DNA of 64,000 bases. It comes from Bolinopsis microptera. Lineage: Eukaryota; Ctenophora; Tentaculata; Lobata; Bolinopsidae. The position numbers were made by a program, and so were the translations under genes. The DNA lies in assembly GCF_026151205.1 (NCBI RefSeq), contig NC_087073.1:4733001-4797000 (forward strand). The letters run 5' to 3'. Shown one piece after another: positions 42,091 to 63,920 of this stretch. Position 1 is the stretch's first letter. Each line of letters begins with the position of its first letter. Under the pieces are notes generated by a model. The model made no database searches and was not told the origin of the DNA. It saw only the letters and a program-made list of their open reading frames with translations.

Positions 42091-43684
42091 CTGTGGGATG
42101 AGGTATGGAGATGTGGGAAAATGGAGCGTGATTTTGTATTGTATATTTGTAACTAGTCCTCATTATGAGAGACAAGTCACTAGTGAGCTTATTAACACTG
42201 CATATATTTGTATATTAATGCTACAGAGTAGTACCAGAGTACGGGTACACATGGCACTATAATAGAGAAACATGGCTCTAAAGGACAGGGTAATTAGTCT
42301 CCTCTAACAATCGCACACTTCAGTGCTTCACAATCCTCACTGTGGAATTACAGGGATCGTTCTAAAGCTCCTACACACGGCTTTGTTTAGTTTAGTTCAG
42401 GGATTACACTTTTACCCTCTCCTTTAAAATGTAAGCGTTTCGCAAAATCATCCGGCAACTTGGGCACATGAATAGCCTTAGGGACATTATGTTAGCTTTT
42501 TGCGAAATATTCTCAGGGCAGGCAAGGCTATCGTCTTCGTGTATTTTTCCCATAATTTAAGCTATAGATGTTGAAATATCGCAATGGTGAAAACCATAGA
42601 CTGACTATGACCCTAACCATTGAGCTCTTACTATCATCCCACAAGCCCACTCCTTCAACCAAGATTCATTGTCGCGTCGGATTTTGTCCGCTCTGGCGAG
42701 GAAAGTGGCATTAAAAATGAGCCGTGCGGTGCTGTAGGAAGTCGATTCTAATGTGCATAACGCATGTAATGAAATTATCATAGGCCCTAAGTACCGGTAT
42801 GTGCTGTAAGAGAGTAAACTACATAGTGTTAGAGCTGTGGCCTGTGCAGTAGACTACTGCCTTGTTTCCTTGTATGGAATCATGATGTGGTCTCGTTGTG
42901 AATATAATGCGTCTTACTCTTAGTTCTTAGTTCTTCGGCCGTTACGCACTATGTTAGATTAATTTATGTTAGATTAATTTATGAATATCTGACACATTTT
43001 GTGTCGTTGTTACATCCAGAAAACGTGCTTCTCTGATCTAGATACGATTCTCTGAGAGATCGTGACAATTCGTTAGTATCAACTAACAAGTTAGATTTTA
43101 GGATCTAAATTCTTTGTTTAAAGGTTTAATATCGAGCAATTCTACTTTCCTTCAAGAGCAAGATGACACTAATTTAATACAGCAGTCTTAGTATCAGCTA
43201 TCATAATTGAATATCATGGCCACAAGCCAACAGTGTACAGACTCCCAATATGGAATAATTGGATAGTTTCTCTGCACCTGAGTAGATTTACTTGCTGAGC
43301 GGTGGCTGTAGTTTCGTTTAATATACGTGAAAGTTCTGTATCCAAACATCGAAGAAAGTCGAAACTAACTTTCATCATATCTTGAAACTGATCAATTTAT
43401 AGCCTGGACGTGACTTGGCCACTTACAGGTGCTCTCACACATTTCTGAGTATCAGGTTTCAGTTTCAACGTTTACAGTTCCTGGCAAGTTCTTGTGTACA
43501 ATGCCGTACTGTTTTCTTTTGTTTTGGCTCGATATACCTCTATGACAATTTGATAACAGATAACTGAGATAATGAGCATGAGATCTGTTTTGGGATTTGC
43601 GATCGTAGAAATATTATTCCTTATTATTCAAACTCGAATATTTGAATATATCGGCTCTAATTCCATTTCATTCACAGACAAAGG
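42091..43684. other. intergenic, upstream of the P450
   Basis: No coding frame recognised. The sequence gttagattaatttat is directly duplicated near 42,953-42,981. The promoter of the P450 gene is presumably here, but I cannot point to a specific TATA or initiator element. Confidence 0.4.
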
Positions 43685-45884: not shown

Positions 45885-46215
45885 TTAGCTGACATGACAT
45901 GGTAAGTAATTCGGCCTAATCTGTGAGATTCCTAGACTATAAAGTATTACCATCTTAGGAGCAACTGACTTAACATCATCTCCAGTAAATTCAGTAGCAG
46001 TTGTAAACAGAGCGTTGGGTTCTGCTATCTCCGCGGGATTTTGTACCACGTGCTCTATCATAGTGGAATTGGACATCGGGGTTACTGGCTTTTTGGCTGG
46101 CATGGTTGGGGTTACTGGTTGTTGGAATAGATTGACTGGCTTTATGTCCTTGTCCTTGTTCTCGACTCGGCGTATTGCGTATTCTTCGTTGATATTTGGG
46201 TCTACCAGCACGAAA
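45885..46215 (-). CDS. exon 11: end of WWE3 and C-terminal tail
   Basis: Acceptor ccttgttcag. It enters in phase 2 from the exon at 47,380-47,527 and gives YFVLVDPNINEEYAIRRVEN, the closing strand and RR of the WWE fold. A tail with repeated PVTP motifs follows, and a TAA at 45,885-45,887. A possible alternative donor (AAGATG|gtaata, about 45,955) could splice to further exons instead. Confidence 0.65.
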
Positions 46216-49200
46216 CTGAACAAGGGAATTGTAATTATTTGCTAACGAAACTGGTTTACTAAATACTTTTCAAATTTTACAGAGTACAGCAATAAATTAA
46301 TATAAAATAGAATCGTTCAAAATATTGCCCCCATCTGTAAAATAAGATGGGCCCAAACACGGTAAACTATGTCCGCAATTACTTGGACCAATGGACCCAA
46401 TACATCAAATTTATCTAAATCCAAAACTTATTAAAAGACTAATGGTTGATTATTTAAATAAGTTACAATTGGCACAGTACTTTTTAAACTTTACATTAAT
46501 AGTAAACGATACCAATTTACAAGTAATTTGATATGATTCACGTACTTAGTTCAACACGCACTATAGTTCGACAACTTAAGTTCGCCAGAAATCACCCCTG
46601 TCGCAATTCGGTACGTGTCGAACTAGAGTCCAGGTAGCGTATTCTAGTTCGACAAATAGTTTCTGCCTGTGATCCAACGGCTATTGCCGGGTCCTCATCA
46701 TAGGATAACAGGGTTCAATGGCAGATAAAACAATTTTCTGACATCTAGCAACCAGCGGTTAGAAATTTCAAAACCTTTTAGTATAGTTTTAATTCTCCTG
46801 TTTGCCACTCGGTTCTGGTCTAGCTAACAGGAAAATATATTGATATCCGACTGTTTCCGATTCAGCAGCCAAATCTCTAGACCGGTACTCGGTTACTAGT
46901 CGTTTGTGATAATAATTAATATAAAGTGTGGTATATGGTAGATATTTATATAGCTTACTCTAGATCTATAAAACAGAGTACGAGGTATCTCTCCGCTCAG
47001 TCTACAATTCTGCTAACTAACAATTGAGTCTGAGGTCAATTAAATGTTCATAGATATGGATTATAGAGATTACCTTCACACATAGTTGAACAGCATGAAA
47101 CAAGTGGAAAACAAACAAACGAATAGATTTCAAGCTCGTAACTTCGTAAAGGATCGTTGCTTGAGATCGGAGATTTCAAAACTCTAGTTCGACAGTCGAA
47201 GTTCTCTCGTCGAACTTTAGTACGTGTCGAACTTGAGTCCAGGTGGCGCACTTTAGTTCGACAGAACCTTCGGGTTTGTTTAACTACAGTACATGTGAAA
47301 TTAAAGTGCGTGTCGAATTTGAGTACGTGTAGTGTGTACCATTTGATATGAATCATGTATGAAAACTGAATCTGCTTACTAGGGATCAAAGTAAATCCAG
47401 TAAGCCTGGTTGTTAAATACGACAGTCAGCCTAGGTTTGCTCTCCGAGAAGGCCATTTCCATCAGTTCGCTCGTGCTTGTGTCGAATGGTAACCAACTCT
47501 TATCTGCACCTTGATGCTCCCAGAGGCCTGAAAAATTTAACTTTCATACTCAGATCCTAAATTAAAGAATCCAGGATAGTTTGGAATCAACCAGATATCC
47601 TAATCAGGCAATTATCCTAATCAGGCAATTATCATAATTACCGGGTGTTTAATATCAATAAATTGATCACGCATTATCTAGGTATATAAATATTATACAA
47701 TGCGAGGAGAAGTAACGTACCTATGGGTTTAATGAAAGAAGGTCTAGTTTTTACACTAGGAGGTGTGGGGGTAGAAGTACGAGGGGGAGGCGACACACTC
47801 TTTACACTCCGCTGAACTTTCCTCTGTTTCCCTGTACTTGTGTTCGTCTGGATCCTGGACTTGGTGTTTACACTGTACTTTATACTGTTGATATGCAGGA
47901 TAACGCACGCTGTGCCGTGCTGTAAGTAAGCAGATTCTAACTTGTTGGATTGTTCTGGAAGGTAGTGGTTCCAGGTGTTGTCGTTAGTAAGCCACTGCCA
48001 GACAGGGCTAGGCTGGCTCAGTTGGAGGGTCTCGTCTCCTGCTGTTTGGAACATCTTGTTGGTCTCTTCTACAGCTGATACCCAGTTACCTGCAATGCAG
48101 TTTACTTAATGTTACAGTGACCAATTAGTAAGTTAACTGAAGATGGCACAAGACAGGATTGAAGCAAATTTGAAAATCACCTAAATGTATTTCTAATACT
48201 AATTATACCGGTAGTACATTTTCAGATATAATAATACATTTTTGTTCATCTGAGTTGATTCTTGATTCGGAGGAAAAACAGGTTTATTCAATATTAAATT
48301 GACTGGAATGTTCCAATAATACAATAGACGATCTGGACAAAAAGTAACTTACCAACAGGTCTCGAGGCAGATTTCTTAACTATTCTATCATAGACAAGTT
48401 TAAATCTTCCAATCTTCCTACTGGATCCAGAGGAAAGAGATTTGACGGTGTACCGGTTAAAGTCGACTGTGTAACCGGGGTGGGAGGAGTCTGCAGCTTT
48501 TAGACTCATCTTACTCTCTCCCCGCAGGTAAATAGCATCAATCACTGAATACAGCGATTGCTAAAAACAATACCAGAAATAAACATCAATACGATACGTT
48601 GATTATAAAAGGCACCAAAAAGCCAAAATAATGATACAATATTTTAGTAAATAAAATTGAAATAATATGTTCAGAAACCTTCGTTCTGTTTGGGATCGTA
48701 AGGACACCAGTTATCATTATCCCCCATCCAATGCCACAACACAATCTCCTGGGAGCTAGAGAGTGGTGGAAGTAAGGGCAGGGATATCTCACCCTCTGGG
48801 AATTGTTTGTGGTACACTGACAGGATGTCCTTGGAGATGTCGTGGAATATAACATCTCGCTCAATCGCTACTATAACACGTTTCAACAACCCTGGGAAAC
48901 GTTACGATAACACGTTACCTTCAGTTTCAGCTAATGTAACTTGATGTGTTTTCAAAAGAAAACTACTATCCTGACTTACAAATTAAAATACTTATCATGC
49001 TTTAAATCATTACCGGTCATTACTGACAATTCCCACACCGGCTTCACATTTACCATTGCCAAACCGGGATAAACAAATAATAATACAAGGCCAATGAGCA
49101 AGACTAAGCTACCTGATAAAACCTTTACAGCATTAACAAGTCTAGGAGCTAGGTACGTACCACACAAGTCTAGGAGCTAGGTACGTACCACACAAGTCTA

Positions 49201-52200
49201 GGAGCTAGGTACGTACCACACAAGTCTAGGAGCTAGGTACGTACCCTTTACAGCATTAACAAGTCTAGGAGCTAGGTACGTACCACTATATTTGGTATTA
49301 ACAAGTCTAGGAGCTAGGTACGTACCACTATATTTGGTAATAACACTCTGCACCACCTTTACAGCATTAACAAGTCTAGGAGCTAGGTACGTACCACTAT
49401 ATTAACAAGTCTAGGAGCTAGGTACGTACCACTATATTTGGTAACAACACTCTGCACCACTTGTGCGACATGTCGGTGAGGAACACGGCGTCCCTCAGTC
49501 AGATGGGGCGTGATAACCAGACAGTCAGCACCGTGTGTCGCCGCCGTGCACAGTAGGATACTCAGCTTCCTTTTTAGGAGGTGTACTTCTTCATTTGTCA
49601 GGTTTAGGTTCTCTTTCTGTCTCTTTAACTAAGGTCATAATATCATAACAGTTTATTTATTTATATTGAAAGAGCTGGAATTCAACTTTCAAGTCCCATG
49701 AACAAATATAAAATTGATAGTAATGAACAAGTACACGAAAGACAAGAGATTGAGGTACAAAAAACAATTAGCGCAAAAGCATGTCCTATTGTACTCTGGT
49801 AGCAGGGAGGTGTTGAGTCATATTATATATTCTAAATAAGTATTGATATTGTGCATACCTTAGGAAGAGGTGAAACAGAGAAGACGTCTACAAGTTGAGT
49901 TTGATCCAGGAAGAGGTAGTTTCTCTGTTGGGACTCTCTGAAGACGGTGACGTTGGTGTTGACTTGACACTCTGTAGGCCCTAACAACCCCATACTTCCC
50001 GTCCTTCTCTCTCCTTTCATCGGTCTGAAAAGGAACCCATGTTATTACATTTTATTATTTAATTAGATTAAAATATGCTTGATTCCGTCCAATCTAAACC
50101 TAATTCACAGCATATAAAGAAATACAACTAATAAAAGTAATATAATGTATATTGATGATGATAAAGTAATAACCCACCCGTCTACATGATCTACACATGT
50201 GTAGTAAGAAGACCTCCTGATGAACTCCTCTAAGGGCCCTATCCCGCCCGTCCGCCACTCTCCACCTGGCTGGTGCGGGTTTGCGGGTACGAACAGACCT
50301 GGCCTGTAACCACTCTTCTGCAAGTGGAGACAAACCTGCCGAGTTTTAGAAATGTTTAAATTAAACTTGATCTTGACTACTGTAGCAACTTTTACTGTTA
50401 AAACCTAATAATAAGAGAATAATATAACAATCTGATTCTGAATGAAATCTGGTGATTAGAACCTGTATGGGGTCGACGTTGATAACGTTGATATCAGTCT
50501 TGTTGAAGCGGAGAGGTGGAGGTTGGTGGAGAATACTCTTATCCTCAACAAACACCTCAGTAGTAGAGTCAGGGAGGTGGACTGTACTGTTAGCTGAGTT
50601 CACATAGCATCCTCTCTGTACACATTCTCTTGTACCCATCATGGTACCTACCAGGAGCCAGCTCAACTTCTTAACCTGACAGAGATACAAAGATAAGGGA
50701 AGGGAAGATAAATGTAAACAGAGCCTTGACAAATCCGAAACAGAGATGGAGCAACATAGTTTGGCTGTTGTACTGTTGTACATACCAGCAATATCAAACA
50801 AAAAATGTGGTTGTCCAGTAAGGTTTAGAGTCTAGAGAACCTTTTTTTCACAAAAATTAGTTGCCATTTTTCATTTTCACCAAGTGGAACCTTCACACGT
50901 GGAATTGCCCATACCAGTAGTCAACATACTTCTAGTCTGTACTATTATATAGTACCAGTAGTAGTCAACAGAAGATATAAATACTGACCTGCATTTTTCC
51001 CTAAGGCTATTACACCTCATGAATAGTGTGCCCTTCACAATAAATCTTGCTCTTTGATAGGTAAGATGATTGCAAGTTGGTGATTGAAGAGCTTTAAAGG
51101 CTTGTAGATAAAATTAGCAGCAAGTATTTACGCAAATAACAAAGCAACTTGCTCGAGATCTTTAAAAGCTAATTGTAATACTATCGCGATCCAATCTTAC
51201 CAAAAAATCAGGACATTGTTAAAACTTCTCGTCGACAATGAATACCATCAGCTCGGGGAATGAGCTTCTTTTATAGTAGTCAGAGGAGGGTAAAAGTTTC
51301 TTTTCTATGATACGGAGCACACTATATAAATAATACCAACTGGTCAGTGGTCACAGTGACAGAAAGGTCGAGCTAGGCATTGCATCTAGCTGTACTAACT
51401 TATCTGTTGACCAGTCGGTTGCTATGTGTATTTTGAGTTGCCGATTTTATTTTCAGGTTTTTCTCGATTTAAAAAACATTACTATATTCACATTCAGTTT
51501 ATCAAACCTTTAATAAATTATTCTAGTGTGTCATAATGTGTCATGGTGGGGGGCATACAACGGTCATTAATGTGCATTAATGGGCATAAATGGGCATTAA
51601 TGTGCATTAATGTATATGTATATTTCAGCAAAATTCTATAATACTGACATTAATGACCGTTGTATCCCCCCGTCATGGTACCGTTGTCATGGTACCGTTG
51701 GAGTGAAAGGATCACTTCAAGGTATCCAAAGTAAAGTTTATAAACTCGCAGATTGTATACAAATGATCACCTCTACAGTCTACGTCTTTCCAAAGAGTTG
51801 TTTAATGATGGCCAGATGGCGTGGATGATTGTATAGCAGGAGAGGATAAACAGGGCATTCACATTAAAATGAAGCTTTTGATATTGGGGTAATAACACGC
51901 CCAATTTCTATCATTTTAGTTTTACCAGAACAGTCCTCTGACATGATCGCAGGAGCTTCTATGTAGAGCAATACGTTTTCATGGCATGTTAATCCAGACA
52001 CGTGATACGTGTCTGGATTCCCTCATCATGAAGCCTAGAACCAGATTCATATGTGGGTGATCACAAAGATAAGGAGTACTCTGCAGTGGTTTCATAGCAG
52101 GAGAGGATAAACAGGGAATATGGCCAGGATGCTAAATTGGGGGCTTTATAACAGTATTTGTGAAAATGCCTTCCTATTTGAAGTAATGGCTTGAACAGCT

Positions 52201-55200
52201 GTTAAGTGGGGATAATTACACAGCAGGAGAGGATAAACAGGGTAGTTATAATAACGGCAAATGTGGGACCTACTGTATTCCTGGCGTCCACCCCCAGTAA
52301 CAGTGTCGCTCACTAAACTTCATCGTTACATTCCTAGGAGACATTGTTGGTATTACAGGCCAGATTCCACAATGTTGATTGTTGGTAGAGAGCAATCAAC
52401 ACGATGCCCAAAATAGGCTTCATAGCAGGAGATGACAAAAAGAATGTCTGGCCGGGATGCAAACTCGCCCTACGACAGCTTCTGTCGAAATGTCTTCTTG
52501 TGGGGATGAACATCACAATGTTGCGAAAGAGCGGGCAGTAAACTTGACTGCAGAAGCTTTTACGAAGAAAAAAAATTGGGCGATTGTAATTTCACAGATC
52601 ACATAAACAAGAACTACCTGAATGTGTACCTACATCATTGCTGAATGACGGTGCGGATAATTACATAGAAGAAGAGGATAAACAGGACCTATTATTATGG
52701 TCGACACTCGACAAGTCTGTGAAAATGTATTCCTTTGTGGGCTAGAGTCAAACTCGCAGATGATAGCGACAAGAGTGAACTATCCACGTTTACCCGTTAT
52801 AGCATTGCTTAATAGTGGTGGTGTGGGTGATTACACAGCACCAGAGGATAAACATTTTGTCAGATATACAACACCAGCTTTGCTGTCCTCATGGTATGTA
52901 AGGAATGGGTAAGGAATTAGTATCTAAATGAGCAGTAGTATTAGTGATCTGCTTGTATTTTAGTGTTATTTCATTCAAATACAGAAATGTGCAGTTTGTC
53001 GCATGTTATGAACTTACAATAAAAGAAAGTAATACACTAGCCATTTAAAGAGCCATCCGTGTGTAATATATAATATATAATATATATTAACTTTTATTTC
53101 CAGTCAGTAAAAGAGATTGACACACAGCAGAAGAGGATAAACATGACAGTGTAGACCACTATACTTCATCTTCACTTTCCAACGAAGGTATAGTTCACAG
53201 CCCCAACTTTCTTCTTGTTCAACTAAGTACTCCAGTCAACAGACAGGAACTGTTATGACGAACAGTGCATTTTCATAACAATATGTTAACACAGCTGTTT
53301 ACAGGTACCTGCACTCGCACATTCTGTGAAAATGACGATATCTACGTCTACTTTATGGTTTGCTCTACGATGGTGTGGATTATTGTATAGCAGGAGAGGA
53401 TAAACAAGACATTATATGGATAATGATTGTTAGAATCATTCTGATATGAAGAAAATTGCACAGTTGGTGGCATCTCGTGGTACTAGAGAATGTCCAAGAA
53501 CTGACAAAAGGTACTTGCACTCACAGCTCAACGATGGTGGGGATGGCTACATAGCAGGAGAGGATAAACAGAACATTATAGTGTGGTTAACATACAACAT
53601 TGGAGCCACATATACATTCTACGTGCCCTACGAAAGTGTCTGTGAAACGTGTTAAGTGGGGATAATTACACAGCAGGAGAGGATAAACAGGGTAGTTATG
53701 GATACCACCAAAAGTGGGACCTACTGTATTCCTGGCGTCTCCACTCTCTAGTAGTGCCAGGCTCCACCACACCATCCTCATATTCCTAGGAGATATTGTT
53801 GGGTGCTACAGCCCTAACTTTCATCTTGTTGCCAAGTACAATCAAGTTCTGGTCAACATACATTATTATAGGAACTTTTATGACGAACAGTACATATTCC
53901 TGGCAAGTTATACGATGTCATCACTTTATGATGCAGATGGCGGGGATTGTTGCACAGCAGGAGAGGATAAAAACTAAACAGGTCATTGAAATTTCTCAAA
54001 CAAATGCATGCGCGATTACAAAGATATGCCTACTTGAGAATTGAGATACAAGAAGAGAATCAAGGTCTACAGAAGTACTGATTTCCGAATAAGAACAGAC
54101 ATTTTACAGCTTTTGATAAGGTCTGCAACTTGGTTGATATCTTTGGGGAAAATTCTGATGAGCAAAATTCTACTTTTATTTTCGATTGATCACTAATCTT
54201 GATATCTATAATTTGTTTTAATTAGCAACTAGCTTAAAACTGAACATTTTATTCTTGTAACCCCCTCTATAATTTTAGTGTGCAAAATCTCAGAAGAATG
54301 TTGTAGAATGTAGGAAGTAACAAGGGTTGATGGGTCAAGTAATGTGGTGGGTTAATTAATATGGTGCAATATGTAATATATCATATTTAATTTCCTGGTA
54401 ATATTCCGGAATATTCCCAGTGTATGTTCTGGTAGACCTACAATATGTAGGCTAAGCTGTATAATATAATGTACAATATATAGTGTATACGGTTACACCA
54501 ATGTAAGGAGAAGTCAAATGAAGAACACGGATAGTTTCATCACTGTTGATCAATAATGTTAACTGAGAGTATGTTTAACAAAAACAATAAGAAAAAACCT
54601 ACATTAATTTATGGGGATTTGAAAACTAATCTAAACGTACAAGTAAGCCTCCAGTTACCTTTCTAGTAGCCTTATAAAACTCGAACCAAGTCCGCCACTG
54701 CTGACTGTCCACAGCACTCCAATCCGGGCTATTTCCTTCAATCAGGACGTTCTCCCAAGTCTTCTCAAAGTCCTCAAGTATAGGCGGCCGTCTGCTAGGC
54801 GAGGCTGCTACTTGTCTGTTAGTGTCTGTGAAACTGTAGAACTCTGTTTTCTCTAGTTCCGTGTCACTTCCATCCCATACACTGCTATCTTTTGAGGAGT
54901 ACTTACACCAACGCAACTCTGAAATTATATCAGGTTCAACCTTTACACCAACGCAACTCTGAAATTATATCAGGTTCAACGCAACTCTGAAATTATATCA
55001 GGTTCAACCTTTGAAATTTTGAATTTCGTTGATGTGAAATGCTACATTACTTACTAAAATCATTAATGTATTATACCAAGTTTAGAATCTATATTAGTCT
55101 ATTTATCCATGTAACTCACGAACCTGAGGAAGGTGCACTGCTGATAGAAGGAGGGTGAGCTGGAGGAGATCTCATCTCATCTCGTGACGACACGTGACTT

Positions 55201-55286
55201 GGTGTTCGGTAGTTGTTCATGTTGTTGTTGTTCATGTTGTTGTTGTTGATTGGGGATTGCTTACGGTTTTGATGGCTCGGAGAGTT
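45885..55286 (-). CDS. PARG-like / triple-WWE protein, 11 exons (gene model)
   Basis: Join, 5' to 3' on the minus strand: 55286-55124, 54918-54659, 50675-50463, 50317-50178, 50024-49859, 49628-49430, 48891-48679, 48544-48353, 48089-47721, 47527-47380, 46215-45885. Every junction is GT-AG and phase-matched, and the total is 2,394 nt (797 residues plus stop). Domain order: Asn/Ser-rich linker (1-54), unidentified segment (55-141), a domain resembling microbial-type poly(ADP-ribose) glycohydrolase (TIGR02452/DUF2263; about 142-425), WWE1 (about 430-505), WWE2 (about 530-600), WWE3 (about 640-705) and a Pro/Thr-rich tail. WWE domains of other proteins bind ADP-ribose units, so a role in ADP-ribose recognition or removal is likely. 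The model probably continues upstream into the copine-like C2 modules, whose exons join in phase 0. The 5' end lies outside the window. Confidence 0.7.
47380..47527 (-). CDS. exon 10: first part of WWE3
   Basis: Encodes LWEHQGADKSWLPFDTSTSE, then LMEMAF and VVFNNQAYWIYFDP: the W, W-xPF, S..LMEMA and Y.I.F landmarks of a WWE domain. The donor gtaagc lies just before an in-frame TAG, so reading through would truncate the domain. Phase 1 in, phase 2 out. Confidence 0.8.
47721..48089 (-). CDS. exon 9: WWE2, complete in one exon
   Basis: The clearest WWE domain in the window: PVWQWLTNDNTWNHYLPEQS, then KLESAYLQHG, VILHINSIKYSVN and RIQTNTSTGKQRKVQR, that is both tryptophans, LE.AY, Y.VN and Q.N..TG..R.V.R. 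A Ser/Pro/Thr-rich linker follows (SVSPPPRTSTPTPPS). Phase 1 at both ends, so the exon is symmetric and could be duplicated or skipped without a frameshift. Confidence 0.85.
48353..48544 (-). CDS. exon 8: second half of WWE1
   Basis: Starting at the internal acceptor attcag, it gives VIDAIYLRGESKMSLKAAD ... GYTVDFNRYTVKSLSSG, completing WWE1 with exact spacing (six residues between PYD and I-D-x-x-Y). The nearer upstream acceptor (ttttag) would put the previous exon out of frame, which decides the start. Confidence 0.75.
48679..48891 (-). CDS. exon 7: end of PARG-like domain and start of WWE1
   Basis: GLLKRVIVAIERD fits the last strand of microbial-type PARG domains (F..VvFAi.d). After about 40 residues comes IVLWHWMGDNDNWCPYDP, the opening of WWE1. 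The donor is the weak gtttct. Phase 1 in and out. Confidence 0.75.
49121..49436. repeat. minisatellite overlapping a splice donor
   Basis: Seven copies of acaagtctaggagctaggta+cgtacc, mostly spaced 29-45 bp or more apart, partly interleaved with ccactatatttggta and tttacagcattaa. On the minus strand each unit contains ggtacgtacc, the donor of exon 6. One unit (about 49,326-49,358) also repeats the last 25-30 coding bases of that exon (..ggtgcagagtgtt). The array therefore grew from the exon 6 border and multiplied its donor site. Confidence 0.85.
49430..49628 (-). CDS. exon 6: PARG-like domain, substrate-loop region
   Basis: Encodes KRKLSILLCTAATHGADCLV then ITPHLTEGRRVPHRHVAQVV. In the microbial-type PARG family this position reads LvLGA.GCG.F.N.P..VA..f; here the Gly/Cys loop is replaced by ITPHLTEG while the following P..VA is kept. 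Donor gtacgt, phase 1. Confidence 0.7.
49859..50024 (-). CDS. exon 5: PARG-like domain, VFR segment
   Basis: Encodes NVTVFRESQQRNYLFL then LVDVFSVSPLPK, matching the (Y)sP.V.VFRd......VdVis.apP segment of TIGR02452 proteins. Phase 2 in, phase 0 out, donor gtatgc. Confidence 0.7.
50178..50317 (-). CDS. exon 4: PARG-like domain, catalytic-loop region
   Basis: Encodes LFVPANPHQPGGEWRTGG then IGPLEEFIRRSSYYTCV. It aligns with the family signature NfAsa..PGGG...GA.aQEE.l.rrS.LY. Two glutamates are kept at the catalytic QEE position (here LEE, residues 241-243 of the model), but the third Gly of GGG is Glu and the Gln is Leu. Phase 0 in, phase 2 out (donor gtgggt). Confidence 0.75.
50463..50675 (-). 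CDS. exon 3: start of PARG-like domain
   Basis: Encodes TRECVQRGCYVNSANSTVHL ... FNKTDINVINVDPIQ. This fits the family's N-terminal helix and strand (aReTl.il..G.Y......v.l) and the V.N.dp...A segment before the catalytic loop. Phase 0 at both ends; the donor gttcta is weak. Confidence 0.65.
50676..54658. other. long intron with diverged repeat blocks
   Basis: A putative 4-kb intron between exons 2 and 3. It holds the eleven-copy agcaggagaggataaac array (51.8-54.0 kb). A few frames exist on + but are shadows of the repeat. Additional small exons cannot be excluded. Confidence 0.45.
51835..53975 (+). repeat. interspersed 20-bp motif array (agcaggagaggataaacagg)
   Basis: Eleven copies begin near 51835, 52096, 52222, 52434, 52666, 52836, 53125, 53388, 53553, 53672 and 53955, all in the same orientation. 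Most are preceded by ggtg.ggat-atta.a.. The spacing varies from about 119 to 289 bp. Two larger blocks with the same flanks (gttaagtggggataattaca ... cctactgtattcctggcgtc) lie 1,450 bp apart (52.20 and 53.65 kb), so the array includes a segment duplication. Confidence 0.85.
54659..54918 (-). CDS. exon 2: unidentified segment before PARG-like domain
   Basis: Encodes about 87 residues, including LRWCKYSSKDSSVWDGSD, then SPSRRPPILEDFEKTWENVL and SQQWRTWFEFYKATRK. It is Trp-rich and charged, and I do not recognise a family. The phases (1 in, 0 out; donor gtaact) fit both neighbours. Its acceptor region is repeated upstream (54,911-55,005). Confidence 0.6.
54911..55005. repeat. splice-acceptor duplication, about 32-40-bp unit
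   Basis: caacgcaactctgaaattat + atcaggttcaac appears three times (about 54,909, 54,950 and 54,979). Each copy includes the minus-strand acceptor (ataatttcag|agttgcg) of exon 2, giving two extra upstream acceptors. Confidence 0.85.
55124..55286 (-). CDS. exon 1 of model: Asn/Ser/Pro-rich linker
   Basis: Encodes NSPSHQNRKQSPINNNN, then two NNNMN repeats and SPPAHPPSISSAPSS, a disordered linker. Acceptor cttttcag, phase 0, which matches the phase-0 end of the C2-module third exon at 55,947. Donor gttcgt, phase 1. This exon is the bridge that would join the C2 modules to the PARG-like part. Confidence 0.6.
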
Positions 55287-55946
55287 CTGAAAAGGGATTT
55301 GTGAGGATACGAGTGCTATTTTTGTTATTTCACATTTTAATTTTATTCAAAACCTCCATTCCTTTCCTCAGTTCTCATCCAGATCTTATCATTGAATTTG
55401 AGAATTTGCTTTAGTTAAATGACAATTTTTCCTAATCAGTTGCAGTATTGGATTATTGGATTATCCAAAAAAACGTACATTTATAATGAATTATAACAAC
55501 AACAATTTAACCGAGCTTCGATCCCCATTATCAACAAATATACATTATAATATAACCTGGTGTTATCTTGATTATTGAGTTACAATTTAGCTAGGAAGGC
55601 AAACAAGAGCTCATAACTACCATTGCTTTATAATAATAGGCGAAATTCGAGAACATCCTCACTCTCTACCAAAAAATATTCTAAAGAAAGTATTAAGTTT
55701 TTCTGATTTCCTCGTTGATTTCTCACAATATCACTAGCCGTTTTGATAGGTAACCTTTTATTTTGCCAAATTTGTTAGATTTCACACTTTGGGTCCATTT
55801 TTACTACTATTTCCATTTTAAACAGATACTTTGTAAAGTAAGCCTCATTTATATCAAGCTGAGCTCTCTTGTAGTAATTTAGGAGCAGGATAAGAAAGTC
55901 GGATGAGCAAAGTGAGAGAAAGGATTGGCGAGGAGTCTTCAGTAAC

Positions 55947-56735
55947 CTCTTTATAGTGCTTCTTATGGGAAGTAGCAACTTTCGATCTCTTACGGTCTGT
56001 TTTACCAGCTTTTGGTGGAGGTGGGTAAAGTTTCCTCGTTTTAATCTGAAAGAGTATGAATTAAATTTAAAGCCCTGGATGGGTTCGAATAATGTTCAGT
56101 CGTTAACTGTTATAGCTAAGTACAGAGCAAGTGATCAACAGAAATACCAAGATAATGCTTACCAAAATCTTTCCATAGTCAGAGCCTTTATATCTGAGAG
56201 CTTTATAAAACTTGGACCCAGAATCTACCAACTCCCCAAGTGTGCATGCTATTTCACCCAAGAAATCTGCTTTGCTTATGTCATTTTCGTAGTCATCTAT
56301 GTCCCACACTTTGATGATTAAATTTTGTTCTTCAGAGGGGATGTAGTCGAGAAAGATCTTTTCTTTGAAAGTAGGGTTTAACTCATTGTCAATACATTCT
56401 GTGCGACCTAGCTGAAGGTTTTATGTGTTCAATGTCCATAGTGAGGAAGGGGCTTTATCATTATAGTGGATGTATTCTTTTCTAAATTTGCCAGGGATGC
56501 AGATTTCGTTAAAAAATAGCAGTTCTGATAAACTAACAATATAGTTACAAATATAGGTAAAAACTACTCTAGCACTACATATTATTTGAAATGTAATGAT
56601 TTTCAAACATACCTCGTTGTTGAATTCGTCGAATACCGTGACAAGAGGATCAGATTTAGAGAATAAATCAGCATCTCTCAGACCAGTGCAGGATATGGTT
56701 AGTTGGACAGTCTGTTTATTGCTGGGGACCTGGCC
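55947..56735 (-). CDS. copine-like C2A module A (three exons)
   Basis: Exons 56735-56613 (123 nt), 56411-56163 (249 nt) and 56045-55947 (99 nt), all phase 0, 157 residues. Exon one: KQTVQLTISCTGLRDADLFSKSDPLV. Exon two: LGRTECIDNELNPTF, VWDIDDYENDISKADFLGE and CTLGELVDSG. These are diagnostic of copine C2A domains; the Asp residues in SKSDP and DIDDYEND fit the Ca2+ loops. Exon three is a basic linker (KTRKLYPPPPKAGK). Unlike its sisters, the donor of exon three is gttact, not gtaaca; read-through would end at a TGA about 88 nt on. Copine C2B and vWA exons do not follow. Confidence 0.75.
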
Positions 56736-56929
56736 CTAAGTTACAGGTAAGTTTATTTCTAGGTTCTTACCTCTTTGCAAGTACGCAGTCCATGCAATTT
56801 AGTTTTCTTCATGCAGAGTTGAGACATATTTTTAAAACTCTTGAGGTGTAAGGATATGCAGCATTCTCTTTGTACTTTTGTAACACATCCTCAACAACCA
56901 ATTTCCTCAATAGTTCACTCCCTTGTTCC

Positions 56930-57300
56930 CTCACTATCTCATCCCATTAATATCTCAACCCTCACCACCACTCCGTCACCCCTCACTCTATCACCCCCAC
57001 TCCGACACCCCTCACTCCGTCATCCCTCACTCCGTCACCCCTCACTCCTACACTCCGTCACCCCTCATTCCGTCACCCCTCACTCTAACACCCCTCACTC
57101 CTACACTCCGTCACCCCTCACTCCTACACTCCGTCACCCCTCATTCCGTCACCCCTCACTCTAACACCCCTCACTCCTAAGTCCTACACTCTAACACCCC
57201 TCACTCCGTCACCCCTCACTCCTACACTCCGTCACCCCTCACTCAGTCACTCCACACTCCGTCACCCATCACTCCGTCACCCCCACTCTGTCACCCCCAC
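56930..57300. repeat. C-rich minisatellite (tcactccgtcacccc), array A
   Basis: Tandem 12-15-bp units of cactccgtcacccct with variants ctccgaca, ctctaaca and ctcctaca, in the intron upstream of module A. The pattern resumes at 57,947-58,110 after a transposon insertion. Long Pro/His/Ser frames here are artefacts. Confidence 0.9.
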
Positions 57301-57308
57301 TCTGTCAC

Positions 57309-57938
57309 TAAGAACCGACCGGAAATCCGGTCCGGTCCGGTCCGGTCCGGTCCGGTATCCGGCCGTTTTTGATCCGGTCCGGTTTTAATGCTGATTTTAG
57401 CCAGAACCAGATTTTAAACTCATTCCTATTTTTATCGAGTGAACTTATATTTTTTATAACTTTACTACTATTTTACTATCAAAATATCATCCCTCTTAGC
57501 GATCCCCGGCTGACTGTCGCCCTACAGCAGTTTAGACGAGACACTAAGTCTCAGCAGATTAATTTAGATACTCACGCAAAATGTTCACAAACGACAGACA
57601 GTCTGAAGCCACTGTGCAGAGGTTGGAGACTCCAAGTCTGAGCTCATTGTCGCAGTATGAGTATTGCTATATTTGTTGCACGTGCGCACACAGGCGCCAG
57701 CTCGTCAGGGGGTCTCGGCGTAAGTTCATTTTTGGCTTTTGCTGTTCCTAAGTTTAACGACATGGTATAATATTATATATCTAGATACTATATTCGAAAT
57801 TATCGTGCAGCAACTGTTTGAAATCCGGTAAAATCCGGCGAGCCTTTAAATAAGAGCCCGAATCCGGTATCCGGTCCGGCTTTTTTATTGAGATCCGGTC
57901 CGGTCCGGCAGCAAAAAAGCCGTTCCGGTCGGTTCCTA
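57309..57938. mobile_element. hAT-type non-autonomous element, copy A
   Basis: Ends taagaaccgaccgga and ttccggtcggttccta are inverted repeats, flanked by the 8-bp duplication tctgtcac on both sides (57,301-57,308 and 57,939-57,946). An 8-bp target duplication is typical of the hAT superfamily. Both sub-terminal regions contain runs of ccggt (tandem at 57,327-57,385). The interior has no transposase. It sits inside the C-rich minisatellite. Confidence 0.85.
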
Positions 57939-58201
57939 TCTGTCACCCCCACTCCGTCACCCCTTACCCCGTCACTCGACCCCCACTCCATCACCCCCCA
58001 CTCCATCACCCCTCAACTTGTCACCCCTTACTCCCCACTTCGTCACCCCTGTCCCCTTACTCTCTCACCTCCTCATTATCTTACCCCCTCCGGGCCCTCA
58101 CCCCTCAATATCCCACTGCCTCGAATCAGCTAAATGAGGGAAATATATTAATAAACTATTGGGGTCCAGTCTTTAGAAGATAACAACGATATAACTGTTA
58201 C

Positions 58202-59043
58202 CTTGATGGAGCTTTTCTTATCAGAAGGAGGAACTTTCTTTCTCGTCCGATCTTTCTTACTGGCTTGTGGTGGAGGTGGACTAAGTTTCCTAGTTTCTAT
58301 CTGAAAATTAAGGTAGCCAACTATAACCTTTAAAGGTGTACAAATAAGGTACAGTCCATGCCTAGTTTAGTCAAGTCAGTAAAGTCGCAACATGTGTCTG
58401 AGCACCTACATCATAACTGAAAATAGTGGTAAGTAATGAAGCAAATATAACTGATAAGACACTGATAATGCTTACAAAAATCTCTCCATAGTCAGAGCCT
58501 TTATATCTGAGAGCTTTATAAAACTTGGACCCAGAATCTACCAACTCCCCAAGTGTGCATGCTATTTCACCCAAGAAATCTGCTTTGCTTATGTCATTTT
58601 CGTAGTCATCTATGTCCCACACTTTGATGATTAAATTTTGTTCTTCAGAGGGGACGTAGTCGAGAAAGATCTTTTCTTTGAAAGTAGGGTTTAACTCATT
58701 GTCAATACATTCTGTGCGACCTAGCTGAAGGTTTTATGTGTTCAATGTCCATAGTGAGGGAGGGGCTTTATCATTATAGTGGATGTATTATTTTCTACAT
58801 TTGCCAGGGAGGAAGATTTCGTTTAAAAATAGCAGTTCTGATAAACTAACTTGATAGTTACAAATATGAGTAAAAACTAGCACTGCATATTATTTGAAAT
58901 GTAATGATTTTCAAACATACCTCGTTGTTGAATTCGTCGAATACCGTGACAAGAGGATCAGATTTAGAGAATAAATCAGCATCTCTCAGACCAGTGCAGG
59001 ATATGGTTAGTTGGACAGTCTGTTTATTGCTGGGGACCTGGCC
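58202..59043 (-). CDS. copine-like C2A module B (three exons)
   Basis: Exons 59043-58921, 58724-58476 and 58300-58202, with the same lengths (123/249/99) and phase 0 as module A. The C2 residues are nearly the same (ending GSDYGEIF). The linker is IETRKLSPPPPQASKKDRTR..., with a good donor (aag|gtaaca), so it can splice onward to module A. Confidence 0.8.
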
Positions 59044-59237
59044 CTAAGTTACAGGTAAGTTTATTTCTAGATTCTTACCTCCTTGCAAGTACGCAGTCCA
59101 TGCAATTTAATTTTCTTCATGCAGAGTTGAGACATAGTTTTTAAACTCTTGAGGTGTAAGGATATGCAGCATTCTCTTTGTACGTTTGTAACACATCCTC
59201 GACAACCAATTTCCTCAATAGTTCACTCCCTTGTTCC

Positions 59238-59494
59238 CTCACTATCTCATCCCATTAATATCTCAACCCTCACCACCACTCCGTCACCCCTCACTCTATC
59301 ACCCCCACTCCGACACCCCCCACTCCGACACCCCCACTCCGACACCCCTCACTCCGACACCCCTCATTCCGTCACCCCTCACTCCGTCATCCCTCACTCC
59401 GTCACTCCTCACTCTAACACTCCTCACTCTGACACTCCTCACTCCGTCACCACTCACTCAGTCACTCCTCACTCTGTCACCCCCACTCTGTCAC
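59238..59494. repeat. C-rich minisatellite, array B
   Basis: Same 12-15-bp family as array A, in the equivalent intron between modules; it resumes at 60,067-60,225. The unit order differs from array A, with more ctccgacaccc units. Confidence 0.9.
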
Positions 59495-60058
59495 TAAGAA
59501 CCGACCGGAAATCCGGTCCGGTCCGGTCCGGTCCGGTATCCGGCCGTTTTTGATCCGGTCCGGTTTTAATGCTGATTTTAGCCAGAACCGGATTTTAAAC
59601 TCATTCCTATTTTTATCGATCCCCGGCTGACTGTCGCCCTACAGCAGTTTAGACGAGACAGTAAGTTTCAGCAGATTAATTTAGATACTCGCGCAAAATG
59701 TTCACAAACGTCAGATAGTTTGAAGCCGCTGTGCAGAGGTTGGAGACTCCAAGTCTGAGCTCATTGTCGCAGTATGAGTATTGCTATATTTGTTGCACGT
59801 GCGCGGCGCATAGGCACCAGCTCGTCAGGGGGTCTCGGCGTAAGTTCATTTCTGGCTTTTGCTGTTCCTAAGTTTACCGACATGGTAAAGTATAATATAT
59901 ATATCTAGATACTATATTCGAAATTATCGTGCAGCAACTGTTTGAAATCCGGTAAAATCCGGCGAGCCTTTAAACCTTTAAATAAGAGCCTGAGTCCGGC
60001 TTTTTTATTGAGATCCGGTCCGGTCCGGCAGCAAAAAAGCCGTTCCGGTCGGTTCCTA
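59495..60058. mobile_element. hAT-type non-autonomous element, copy B
   Basis: Same ends, same 8-bp flank (tctgtcac) and same host context as copy A, but about 66 bp shorter (one loss near 59,616 after tttttatcga). The identical target site shows it was duplicated along with the module rather than inserted anew. Confidence 0.85.
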
Positions 60059-60310
60059 TCTGTCACCCCCACTCCGTCACCCCTTACCCCGTCACTCGAC
60101 CCCCACTCGATCACCCCCCACCCCATCACCCCTCAACTTGTCACCCCTTACTCCCCACTTCGTCACCCCTGTCCCCTTACTCTCTCACTTCCTCATTATC
60201 TTACCCCCTCCGGGCCCTCACCCCTCACTATCTCACTGCCTCGAATCAGCTAAATGAGGGAAAACTATTGGGGTCCAGTCTTTAGAAGATAACAACGAAA
60301 TAACTGTTAC

Positions 60311-61161
60311 CTTGATGGAGCTTTTCTTATCAGAAGGAGGAACTTTCTTTCTCGTCCGATCTTTCTTACTGGCTTGTGGTGGAGGTGGACTAAGGTTCCT
60401 AGTTTCTATCTGAAAATTAAGGTAGCAAACTATAACCTTTAAAGGTGTACAAATAAGGTACAGTCGATGCCTAGTTTTGTCAAGTCAATAAATTCGCAAT
60501 AAGTTTCTGAGCACCTACATCATAACTGAAAATAGTGGTAACTAACGAAGCATATAATATATAACTGATAAGACACTGATAATGCTTACAAAAATCTTTC
60601 CATAGTCAGAGCCTTTATATCTGAGAGCTTTATAAAACTTGGACCCAGAATCTACCAACTCCCCAAGTGTGCATGCTATTTCACCCAAGAAATCTGCTTT
60701 GCTTATGTCATTTTCGTAGTCATCTATGTCCCACACTTTGATGATTAAATTTTGTTCTTCAGAGGGGACGTAGTCGAGAAAGATCTTTTCTTTGAAAGTA
60801 GGGTTTAACTCATTGTCAATACATTCTGTGCGACCTAGCTGAAGGTTTCATGTGTTCAATGTCCATAGTGAGGGAAGGGCTTTATCATTATAGTGAATGT
60901 ATTCTTTTCTACATTTGCCAGGGAGGAAGATTTTGTTTAAAAATAGCAGTTCTGATAAACTAACAATATAGTTACAAATATAGGTAAAAACTAGCACTAC
61001 ATATTACGTATTTGAAATATAATTTTGTTCAAACATACCTCGTTGTTGAATTCGTCGAATACCGTGACAAGAGGATCAGATTTAGAGAATAAATCAGCAT
61101 CTCTCAGACCAGTACAGGATATGGTTAGTTGGACAGTCTGTTTATTGCTGGGGACCTGGCC
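60311..61161 (-). CDS. copine-like C2A module C (three exons)
   Basis: Exons 61161-61039, 60838-60590 and 60409-60311; lengths 123/249/99, phase 0. The C2 landmarks are intact (SKSDPL, WDIDDYEND, DFLGE, LGEL). The linker has one visible change (RNLSPPPP for RKLSPPPP). The donor is consensus. Confidence 0.8.
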
Positions 61162-61329
61162 CTAAGTTACAGGTAAGTTTATTTCTAGATTCTTACCTCC
61201 TTGCAAGTACGCAGTCCATGCAATTTAGTTTTCTTCATGCAGAGTTGAGACATAGTTTTTAAACTCTTGAGGTGTAACGATTTGCAGCATTTTCTTTGTA
61301 ATTTTGTAACACATCCTCAACAACCAACT

Positions 61330-62180
61330 TCCCCCCACTCCGCTACCCTCACTCGATCACCCCCACTCCGTCACCCCTCACTCCGACACCCCCCACTCCG
61401 TCACCCCTCACTCCGTCACCCCTCACTCCGACACCCCTCACTCCATCACCCCTCACTCCATCACCCCTCACTCCGTCACCCCTCACTCCGTCACCCCTTA
61501 CTCTCTCGCTCCTCACTCCGACACCCCTCACTCCATCACTCCTCACTCCGACAACCCTTACTCCATCACCCGTCACCCCCACTCCGTCACCCCTCACTCC
61601 GTCACCCCTCACTCCTCACTCCGACACCCCTCACTCCATCACCCCTCACTCCGTCACCCCTCACTCCGTCACCCCTTACTCTCTCACTCCTCACTCCGAC
61701 ACCCCTAACATCCCATCACTCCTCACTCCGACACCCCTCACTCCGACACCCCCACTCCGTCACCCCTCACTCCATCTCCCCTCACTCCATCACCCCTCAC
61801 TCCTCACTCCGACACCCCTCATTCCATCACCCCCACTTCGTCACCCCTCACTCCATCACCCCTCACTCCGTCACCCCTCACTCCGACACCCCCCACTCCG
61901 TCACCCCTCACTCCATCTCCCCTCACTCCATCACCCCTCACTCCGTCACTCCTCACTCCGACACCCCTCACTCCATCACCCCCACTTCGTCACCCCACAC
62001 TCCGTCACCCCCACTTCGACACCCCTCACTCCGTCACCCCCACTCTGACACTCCTCACTCCGTCACCCCTCACTCCGTCACTCCACACTCCGACACCCCT
62101 CAACTTGTCACCCCTTACTCCCCACTTCGTCACCCCTAGCCTTACTCTCTCATCTCCTCATTATCTTACCCCCTCCGGGC
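61330..62180. repeat. C-rich minisatellite, array C
   Basis: About 60 units of cactccgtcacccct with ctccgaca and ctccatca variants. No hAT element interrupts it, unlike arrays A and B. A 290-codon Ser/Leu/Arg/His/Pro frame spanning it is an artefact of the unit length. Confidence 0.9.
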
Positions 62181-62286
62181 CCTCACCCCTCAATATCCCA
62201 CTGCCTCGAATCAGCTAAATGAGGGAAATGTATTAATAAACTATTGCCGTCCAGTCTTTAGAAGATAACAACGAAATAACTGTAAC

Positions 62287-62703
62287 CTTGATGGAGCTTT
62301 TCTTATCAGATGGAGGAACTTTCTTTCTCGTCCGATCTTTCTTACTGGCTTGTGTTGGAGGTGGACTAAGTTTCCTAGTTTCTATCTGAAAATTAAAGGT
62401 AGCAAACTATAACCTTTAAAGGTTGTACAAATAAGGTACAGTCGATGCCTAGTTTTGTCAAGTCAATAAATTCGCACATGTGTCTGAGCACCTGCATCAT
62501 ATAAACTGAAAATAGTGGTAACTAACGAAGCAAACATAACTGATAAGACAGTGATAATGCTTACAAAAATCTTTCCATAGTCAGAGCCTTTATATCTGAG
62601 TGCTTTATAAAACTTGGACCCAGAATCTACCAACTCCCCAAGTGTGCATGCTATTTCACCAAGAAATCTGCTTTGCTTATGTCATTTTCGTAGTCATCTA
62701 TGT
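62287..62703 (-). pseudogene. copine-like C2A module D, broken
   Basis: The third exon (62385-62287) is intact and in phase. The second exon starts correctly at its 3' end (62,565) but has lost one C in the run near 62,659 (ttcaccaag for ttcacccaag), a frameshift, and it stops matching at 62,703. Only scattered fragments of the rest and of exon one can be traced to 63,130. It may be a real decay or a sequence-quality problem. Confidence 0.65.
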
Positions 62704-63139
62704 CTTCCCAACTTGAGATCCCTATTCTCAAGGCTAATCCAAACCTCATTTTCTTTGAAAGAGTTAACCCCCATGTCAACATCTTCGACCATCTAATCTA
62801 GTTTCACACTCCTCTCAGCGGGGCTTTTCTTATATTCATCCCCATTTCTTCTACCCTCAGAGACATTTCTAAATACTCTGTAACCACAATCCATTACATT
62901 AGACAACTCATCATCCGTTTAAAATATTACATCATCCTCGTTGAATCTCGAACCTGCAGGATCGATAAAAAATCACACTCTCACCCCAACCAGGTAGAGG
63001 CCATTGTATCTGGCCTCGGCCCTAACTTCGAATTTCTAGTTCTACCCCTCATCGCATCTCACATTTGTTTCTCTCAAGTTGGCAGCTTAAACTCTTATTC
63101 GATTGCACTTCCTTGTACTTTTGTCATCTCCTCATAATC
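62704..63139. other. degraded remainder of module D
   Basis: Short islands match the module in the right order (ttttctttgaaag, acctcgttgaat.., aaactctt, ttttgt.acatcctca) but with many gaps and substitutions between them. No frame is intact. Confidence 0.5.
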
Positions 63140-63920
63140 TTCCCCCCCTCCGCTACCTCACCGACCCTCCCACTCCGCCTCACACCGAATCGCACTGTTA
63201 CCTTGCCCCCACTCCGACACTCCTCACTCCGACACCCCTCACTCCGTCACCCCCTCCACTCCGTCACCCCCCTCACTCCGTCACCCCTCACTCCGTCACC
63301 CCTCACTCCGTCACCCCTCACTCCGTCACCCCTCACTCCGTCACTCCTCACTCCGACCCACCCCTCACTCCGTCACCCCTCACTCCGTCACCCCTTACTC
63401 TCTCACTCCTCACTCCGACACCCCTAACTCCCATCACTCCTCACTCCGACACCCCTCACTCCGACACCCCCACTCCGTCACCCCCTCACTCCATCTCCCC
63501 TCACTACATCACCCCTCACTCCTCACTCCGACACCCCCTCATTCCATCACCCCCACTTCGTCACCCCTCACTCCATCACCCCCTCACTCCGTCACCCCTC
63601 ACTCCGACACCCCCCCACTCCGTCCCCCCCTCACTCCATCTCCCCTCACTCCATCACCCCTCACTACCGTCACTCCTCACTCCGACACCCCTCACTCCAT
63701 CACCCCCACTTCGTCACCCCCACCTCTCCGTCACCCCCACTTCGACACCCCCCTCACTCCGTCACCCCCACTCTGACACTCCTCACTCCGTCACCCCTCA
63801 CTCCGTCACTCCACACTCGACACCCCTCAACTGTCACCCCCTTACTCCCCACTTTCGTCACCCCTAGCCCTTACTCTCTCATCTCCTCATTATCTTACCC
63901 CCTCCGGGCCCTCTCCCCTC
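63140..63920. repeat. C-rich minisatellite, array D
   Basis: Unit order follows array C almost exactly (for example the shared block cttactctctcactcc ... cccctaac ... ccatctcccctc), but with more than ten extra or missing single bases, mostly in C runs. The end (63,930-64,000) matches the 3' flank of the other modules, implying another third exon just beyond the window. Confidence 0.85.

What the first reader, a model, noticed from the sequence alone, without database searches (positions are those of the whole stretch)
45885..62385. Candidate C2 - PARG-like - triple WWE gene, an unusual architecture
Seen: minus-strand exons for copine-type C2A modules, an Asn-rich linker, a microbial-type PARG-like domain and three WWE domains join with GT-AG borders and matching phases; the 11-exon 3' part sums to exactly 798 codons. 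Known: WWE domains bind ADP-ribose units, TIGR02452 proteins cleave poly(ADP-ribose), and copine C2 domains bind membranes in a Ca2+-dependent way. Inference: a Ca2+/membrane-targeted ADP-ribose reader or eraser. I know of no described protein with this order.
Basis: partly seen in the sequence, partly recalled or inferred. Interest (0 to 1): 0.82.

Follow-up and report, generated by a model that had tools for sequence, protein, structure and literature searches.

The report
Comb-jelly PARG-like, triple-WWE gene
A comb-jelly gene joins a bacterial-style ADP-ribose enzyme fold to three domains of a kind that binds ADP-ribose, and may also carry a string of calcium-sensing membrane domains in front; whether that string belongs to the same protein needs RNA data.

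Summary
On the minus strand, 11 GT-AG exons with matching phases (55,286-45,885) encode 803 residues: an Asn-rich linker, a microbial-type PARG-like domain (PF10021 36.1 bits, cut-off 23.5; profile-profile score 60.7 against at most 31.0 in 200 shuffles) and three WWE domains (112.7 bits). I count 804 codons, not 798. A protein search found no second copy there.

Upstream lies a copine-type C2A array of nine units, eight complete, reaching 12 kb beyond the window. Apart from the last linker, exons are 98-100% identical between the units compared and introns 92-95%, so the exons look constrained. One linker exon has stops; one unit is truncated.

Whether array and PARG-WWE form one protein is open. 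Phases, a conserved donor and coding scores favour it; but ctenophores trans-splice leaders, so the acceptors at 55,286 or 50,675 could be mRNA 5' ends, and a read-through stop plus AATAAA follows the last C2 linker.

"Eraser" is doubtful: a glutamate aligns with the catalytic one, but GGG is GGE, QEE is altered and the GCGVF loop is replaced. Best reading: an ADP-ribose reader, possibly Ca2+/membrane-targeted; a new combination of known parts.

The parts
62571..62666 (-). C2A unit 6, truncated: only the last 32 residues of exon b; no exon a found
   Evidence: tblastn of the C2 exons
62287..62385 (-). C2 unit 6, exon c (Lys-rich linker, open)
61039..61161 (-). C2A unit 7, exon a (first part of C2)
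60590..60838 (-). C2A unit 7, exon b (second part of C2)
60311..60409 (-). C2 unit 7, exon c (Lys-rich linker)
58921..59043 (-). C2A unit 8, exon a
58476..58724 (-). C2A unit 8, exon b
58202..58300 (-). C2 unit 8, exon c (Lys-rich linker)
56613..56735 (-). C2A unit 9 (last), exon a
56163..56411 (-). C2A unit 9, exon b
55947..56045 (-). C2 unit 9, exon c (c9): diverged Lys-rich linker, 74 of 97 aligned bases like unit 2; ends AAAGAG|GTTAC, the same border as exon c of unit 1
55124..55286 (-). E1: Asn-rich linker exon; enters at phase 0; no in-frame ATG before codon 18 of the exon
54659..54918 (-). E2: no Pfam family; highest coding score of the exons scored, above all 134 null frames
50463..50675 (-). 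E3: start of the PARG-like domain; in-frame ATGATG from 50,642 is a possible alternative start
50178..50335 (-). E4: PARG-like domain with the altered catalytic motif PGGEWRTGGIGPLEE
49859..50024 (-). E5: PARG-like domain
49430..49628 (-). E6: PARG-like domain; holds the replaced diphosphate-loop stretch
49136..49460 (-). Tandem repeats that copy the end of E6 and its splice donor several times
   Evidence: Tandem Repeats Finder; sequence
48679..48891 (-). E7: end of the PARG-like domain, first half of WWE 1
48353..48544 (-). E8: second half of WWE 1
47721..48089 (-). E9: WWE 2, the most canonical of the three
47380..47527 (-). E10: first part of WWE 3
45885..46215 (-). E11: rest of WWE 3 (by eye), low-complexity tail without a Pfam match, stop codon

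Best explanation
Its C-terminal half, a PARG-like macro fold followed by three WWE domains, is well supported as one exon chain (I put 0.9 on E3-E11, about 0.65 on E1-E2 belonging to it). Most likely, but not shown, the same transcript begins further right and puts one or more copine-type C2A domains, each followed by a Lys-rich linker, in front. The inferred way of working: Ca2+ brings the C2A string to acidic membranes; the middle WWE domain, and perhaps the PARG-like fold, hold poly-ADP-ribose or ADP-ribosylated targets there. The PARG-like fold is inferred to bind more than to cleave, because the glutamate aligned with the catalytic one is kept while the glycine loop and the diphosphate loop are not. 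Shown by computation: the domains, exon borders, phases and aspartates. Inferred: the C2 join, membrane targeting, PAR binding, lack of strong hydrolysis.
For: Eleven in-phase GT-AG exons, 803 open residues. WWE 112.7 bits, three stretches, and PF10021 above its cut-off. Profile-profile score 60.7 against at most 30.97 in 200 shuffles. C2 exons: in the 8 pairs of units compared (of 21 possible among the 7 units used; units 1 and 6 left out) exons a and b are 98.8-100% identical, and the introns 92.3-95.4% where unit 9's second intron is not involved, which speaks for constraint on the exons or exon-limited conversion. Five of five aspartates at the usual Ca2+-ligand positions in 8 of 8 complete units. 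All exons a, b, c start and end in phase 0, as does the entry of E1. Exon c9 ends at AAAGAG|GTTAC exactly like exon c of unit 1, although exon c9 is only 76% like units 2 and 8. Coding score per codon: c9 +0.149 but its read-through -0.066; E1 +0.169; E2 +0.386, above all 134 null frames; E2's read-through -0.140; E3 +0.174 but its upstream extension -0.352. Thirteen ATGs between c9 and E1 give no convincing phase-0 first exon.
Against: No RNA evidence. Ctenophores trans-splice leaders: found on at least 56% of Iso-Seq reads of Hormiphora californensis (PMC8527503, passages), so E1 or E3 can be a first exon. Read-through of c9 ends at a stop at 55,854 with AATAAA at 55,762; E3 has ATGATG at 50,642 just before the PARG match. 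Exon c of unit 5 has two stops, so a transcript holding every exon from unit 1 would stop there unless that phase-0 exon is skipped. Exon c9 is no better conserved (76%) than the intron before it (72-78%). Scores of E1 and E3 are exceeded by 6 of 134 null frames, that of c9 by at least 8. Introns of 660 and 3,983 bases at the two doubtful joins are not short. PARG: TIGR02452 cut-off not met.
Confidence: 0.43

Rival explanations
1. Two (or more) neighbouring genes on the same strand: a C2A-array gene that ends with c9 (or E2), and a separate PARG-like/triple-WWE gene whose mRNA starts at E1 or E3, through a trans-spliced leader or its own promoter. The PARG-WWE protein is then a soluble ADP-ribose reader or eraser with no tie to Ca2+ or membranes.
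For: Leader trans-splicing is common in a ctenophore relative (PMC8527503). Stop at 55,854 and AATAAA at 55,762 after c9. ATGATG at 50,642 right before the PARG-like match begins, 3 residues on. A 3,983-base intron between E2 and E3. Exon c of unit 5 carries stops.
Against: c9 keeps a donor shared with unit 1 and its read-through does not score as coding; E2, the exon between the two parts, scores best of the exons tested. The residues before the E3 ATG line up with the N-terminal helix of bacterial PARGs rather than with untranslated sequence (by eye).
Confidence: 0.45
2. The PARG-like domain is an active (ADP-ribosyl)hydrolase: WWE domains bring it to PAR or ADP-ribosylated RNA and it cleaves the ribose-ribose bond.
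For: Full-length similarity to bacterial PARGs; a Glu falls on the second Glu of QEE in the ungapped alignment, and both Glu of a shifted LEE in the other register. Eukaryotic bacterial-type PARGs with altered motifs are known, function unknown (PMC4245714 section 14).
Against: Third Gly of GGG is Glu, QEE is altered, and the stretch with the G[A,V][F,Y] patch that bends the distal ribose (PMC7050489 passages) is replaced by TEGRRVP. Two loci with the canonical PARG family PF05028 exist in this genome to do the job.
Confidence: 0.2
3. A decaying gene or assembly fault: the array copies and the broken unit mean that the locus no longer makes a protein.
For: Unit 5 linker stops, unit 6 truncation; long minisatellites between units.
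Against: 803 open residues over 11 exons with intact splice sites; exons 98.8-100% (a, b) against introns 92-95% identical among most units; no Ns in the window or in L001-L003.
Confidence: 0.06

Closest known systems
Microbial-type PARG (PF10021 / TIGR02452; solved example 3sig)
   Same: Fold-length similarity, helix and strand order, a Glu at the catalytic place.
   Different: GGE for GGG, (P)LEE for QEE, GCGVF loop replaced; fused to WWE domains; in an animal. The 13 animals of Table 2 in PMC4245714 carry no bacterial-type PARG entry; no ctenophore is in that table.
WWE-domain ADP-ribosylation readers and ligases (Deltex, TRIP12, HUWE1, PARP11, ZAP)
   Same: WWE domains; best solved matches Deltex, TRIP12, HUWE1, DTX1.
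   Different: No RING, HECT, DTC, PARP or zinc-finger domain in the joined chain. The genome's Deltex is elsewhere, C9:4.78 Mb.
Copines / BONZAI
   Same: C2A type, E 4.3e-18 to BONZAI 1.
   Different: The 21 matches to the copine vWA family PF07002 lie elsewhere in the genome, none within this stretch of C2; instead a head-to-tail array of C2A alone with Lys-rich linkers.
PARP14-like and WWE-PARP proteins
   Same: Macro-type fold and WWE in one protein (PMC4245714 passages).
   Different: Macro fold is of the PARG-like class and there is no PARP domain in the joined chain.

Membership tests
Microbial-type PARG (PF10021 / TIGR02452) | Match to the Pfam model above its curated cut-off | tested here: met
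   36.1 and 35.7 bits, cut-off 23.5
Microbial-type PARG (PF10021 / TIGR02452) | Match to TIGR02452 above its curated cut-off | tested here: not met
   24 bits, cut-off 50
Microbial-type PARG (PF10021 / TIGR02452) | Similarity over the whole fold in a profile comparison | tested here: met
   Score 60.7, 236 columns; 200 shuffles at most 30.97
[quoted passage not shown]
   PGGEWRTGGIGPLEE; the aligners put PLE under QEE, one inserted residue would put LEE there; motif from PMC7050489 passages
Microbial-type PARG (PF10021 / TIGR02452) | Catalytic Glu (second Glu of QEE) | tested here: met
   Glu in either register
Microbial-type PARG (PF10021 / TIGR02452) | Diphosphate loop GCGVF with the G[A,V][F,Y] patch | tested here: not met
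   TEGRRVP at that place
Microbial-type PARG (PF10021 / TIGR02452) | Hydrolysis of poly(ADP-ribose) | not testable with these tools
   needs purified protein
WWE domain | Match to PF02825 above its cut-off | tested here: met
   112.7 bits, three stretches
WWE domain | PAR-binding residues such as the Gln and Arg near the C-terminal end (positions recalled from RNF146; R163 essential, PMC7404130 passages) | tested here: inconclusive
   By eye: kept in WWE 2 (Q..N..TG..R..R), Gln replaced in WWE 1 and 3; no structure comparison made
Copine | C2A domain with Ca2+-ligand aspartates | tested here: met
   8 of 8 complete units
Copine | C-terminal vWA (Copine, PF07002) domain | tested here: not met
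   21 genome matches, none near this locus
Single C2-PARG-WWE protein | One transcript joining c9-E1 and E2-E3 | not testable with these tools
   phases and coding scores fit, no RNA data

The most novel reading that the evidence does not exclude
One ctenophore protein strings up to eight Ca2+-binding C2A domains and Lys-rich linkers in front of a PARG-derived ADP-ribose-binding fold and three WWE domains: a Ca2+-gated, membrane-recruited reader of poly-ADP-ribose, with the number of C2 units free to change because every unit exon is phase 0. It would link Ca2+ signalling at membranes to ADP-ribosylation by domain fusion.
Probability: 0.4. Interest if true: 0.72.

Novelty: new variant of a known kind. 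Interest (0 to 1): 0.5.

Why it matters
ADP-ribosylation is mostly studied in nucleus and cytosol; a reader with built-in Ca2+/membrane sensors would be an unexpected wiring. Even without the C2 part, a bacterial-type PARG fold with three WWE domains in a ctenophore, the proposed sister group of other animals, adds to a survey that lists this type in no animal of its table (PMC4245714), and asks how many such folds became readers. The C2 array also shows a repeat-rich gene that can change its domain number by whole phase-0 exons.

Tried and rejected
Copine gene with its vWA part nearby: rejected, no PF07002 match in this stretch. A second PARG-WWE gene in the genome: the protein search gave 10 matches, all at this locus; the PF10021 family search found nothing in the genome, not even this locus, because exons are searched one by one, so absence is not proved. 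Relatives elsewhere: plasmids one record, E 0.1, 21.9% identity, a TIGR02452 protein; phages none; viral contigs none for the WWE 2 exon; bacterial genomes with that plasmid protein as query, 4 loci of 23 stretches, used as PARG comparison. One of these four (L014) was dropped from the profile because its reading was frameshifted; L012 is the same record as L011. COX1 search to name the organism: nothing. PDB search with the joined chain found WWE relatives but no PARG. Three of the five other WWE loci fetched (L006, L007, L008) were not scanned; L004 is Deltex and L005 gave only a WWE match above cut-off. No comparison with other ctenophores was possible: no eukaryote collection is held.

Full report
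What is there. The window is G000:C2:4,733,001-4,797,000 of a 264,652,675-base genome. E10 joins E11 through a GTAAGC donor two bases into what would otherwise be the stop codon TAG; E11 supplies the C-terminal strand of WWE 3 by eye and raises the WWE score from 110.9 to 112.7 bits.

Domains. Pfam finds WWE (three stretches) and PARG_cat_microb, 35.7-36.1 bits with a cut-off of 23.5. Unspliced frames reached only 15.1 bits for PARG, so the splice model earns the match. TIGR02452 aligns over positions 6-251 of 266 at 24 bits, below its cut-off of 50. hhalign against five PARG sequences (two PDB chains and L012, L013, L015; L014 dropped for a frameshift) gives score 60.7 and probability 95.3 over 236 columns; 200 shuffles gave a median of 14.1 and a maximum of 30.97.

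Catalytic parts. The alignment puts PGGEWRTGGIGPLEEFIRRSS on PGGGFLSGAHAQEEGLARSS. The third Gly of GGG is Glu. Without a gap PLE lies under QEE; with one inserted residue LEE would. Either way a Glu sits at the catalytic place. The loop VLGAWGCGVFGND reads VITPHLTEGRRVPHR: the GCGVF stretch is gone. Rack et al. describe GGGx6-8QEE and the G[A,V][F,Y] patch that bends the distal ribose (PMC7050489, passages). Perina et al. report that few eukaryotic bacterial-type PARGs keep the full motif and leave their function open (PMC4245714, section 14). I infer binding with weak or no hydrolysis. Two loci with the canonical PARG family PF05028 and 18 matches to the PARP family show that the genome has writers and ordinary erasers.

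The C2 array. tblastn and the flanking sequence show nine C2A units from 75,853 to 56,163 in window numbering, eight with both C2 exons. Each unit has exon a, exon b and a Lys-rich linker exon c, all phase 0 at both ends (unit 1's exon a instead begins at an ATG). Eight pairs were compared, of 21 possible among seven units (units 1 and 6 left out): exons a and b 98.8-100% identical, exon c 98-100%, introns 92.3-95.4%; the exceptions are the pairs with unit 9, whose exon c is 76% and whose second intron is 72-78% identical. So exons a and b are under constraint or exon-limited conversion. All five aspartates are present in 8 of 8 complete units (their role is recalled from C2 domains in general). 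The closest solved protein is BONZAI 1, E 4.3e-18. The copine vWA family has 21 matches in the genome, none here. Unit 5's exon c has two stops and unit 6 is truncated; because each unit exon is phase 0, skipping could keep the frame, but that is inference.

One gene or two. For one: E1 needs an exon ending in phase 0, and c9 offers it at a border, AAAGAG|GTTAC, identical to unit 1's. Coding scores, trained on 1,074 codons of the P450, the PARG-WWE exons from E4 on, and one C2 unit, are +0.149 for c9 and -0.066 for its read-through, +0.169 for E1, +0.386 for E2, -0.140 for its read-through, +0.174 for E3 and -0.352 for its upstream extension; of 134 null frames none reaches E2, 6 exceed E1 and E3, and at least 8 exceed c9. 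No convincing phase-0 first exon starts at any of the 13 ATGs between c9 and E1. Against: leader trans-splicing is on at least 56% of Iso-Seq reads in Hormiphora (PMC8527503, passages), so an acceptor without an upstream exon is normal in ctenophores; a stop at 55,854 and AATAAA at 55,762 follow c9; E3 has an ATGATG at 50,642 just before the PARG match; the last two large gaps are 660 and 3,983 bases; and c9 is no better conserved than its neighbouring intron. I put 0.9 on E3-E11 as one chain, about 0.65 on E1-E2 belonging to it, and a little under one half on the whole fusion.

Organism. Largest contig 26,206,493 bases and 264.65 Mb fit Bolinopsis microptera, 265 Mb, 13 chromosomes, largest 26.2 Mb (PMC11797021, Table 1 passage). 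The number of pieces differs (232 here, 346 scaffolds there). 17 wnt exon matches at five places and 18 innexin matches agree with an animal that has gap-junction genes and few Wnts. The name is an inference.

Novelty. Listings and passages only: no paper (21 papers, 15 listed; 5; 75, 15 listed) or 54 (34, 12 listed) showed this combination by title, start of abstract or the passages I read; two searches returned no paper. None of the 13 animals in Table 2 of PMC4245714 has a bacterial-type PARG entry, and that paper's text on extra domains in PARGs does not mention WWE. No eukaryote sequence collection was at hand, so the same order may exist unannotated in other ctenophores.

Noticed in passing
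G000:C2:4,522,800-4,527,723 (L009:2800-7723): Inverted partial duplicate (95-97% identical) of the 5' end of the C2 array (window numbering 77,386-70,307), 280 kb away, holding unit 1 and four further candidate exons but lacking about 2.2 kb that the array locus has; in two of the candidate exons the copies differ by 6 and 18 bases, both multiples of three.
   Followed up: partly
L001-L002, window numbering 71,519-70,351: After unit 1 come candidate exons x1-x4 for an acidic, low-complexity stretch without a Pfam match; x1 scores as coding (+0.32 bits per codon), x3 (-0.01) and x4 (+0.07) hardly.
   Followed up: partly
49,136-49,460: Tandem repeats copy the end of exon E6 with its GTACGT splice donor several times, giving competing donors inside a PARG-domain intron.
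   Followed up: no
56,969-63,840: 15-base minisatellites (CACTCCGTCACCCCT) of up to about 54 copies between the C2 units, and short TCCGG pentamer arrays.
   Followed up: no
43,661-45,175, plus strand: Uninterrupted cytochrome P450 frame, 504 aa, PF00067 239.8 bits, facing the 3' end of the PARG-WWE gene.
   Followed up: partly
L002:5,630-10,000, minus strand: Upstream gene with weak WD40 matches; by eye (recalled) the end of a cytoplasmic dynein intermediate chain.
   Followed up: no
L002:1-400, minus strand: Reverse-transcriptase-like reading, by eye, next to the stretch that the duplicate lacks; seen only, no family search made.
   Followed up: no
G000:C2:9,095,016-9,096,032: PARP and WWE matches side by side in one 620-aa open frame, a WWE-PARP candidate.
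   Followed up: no
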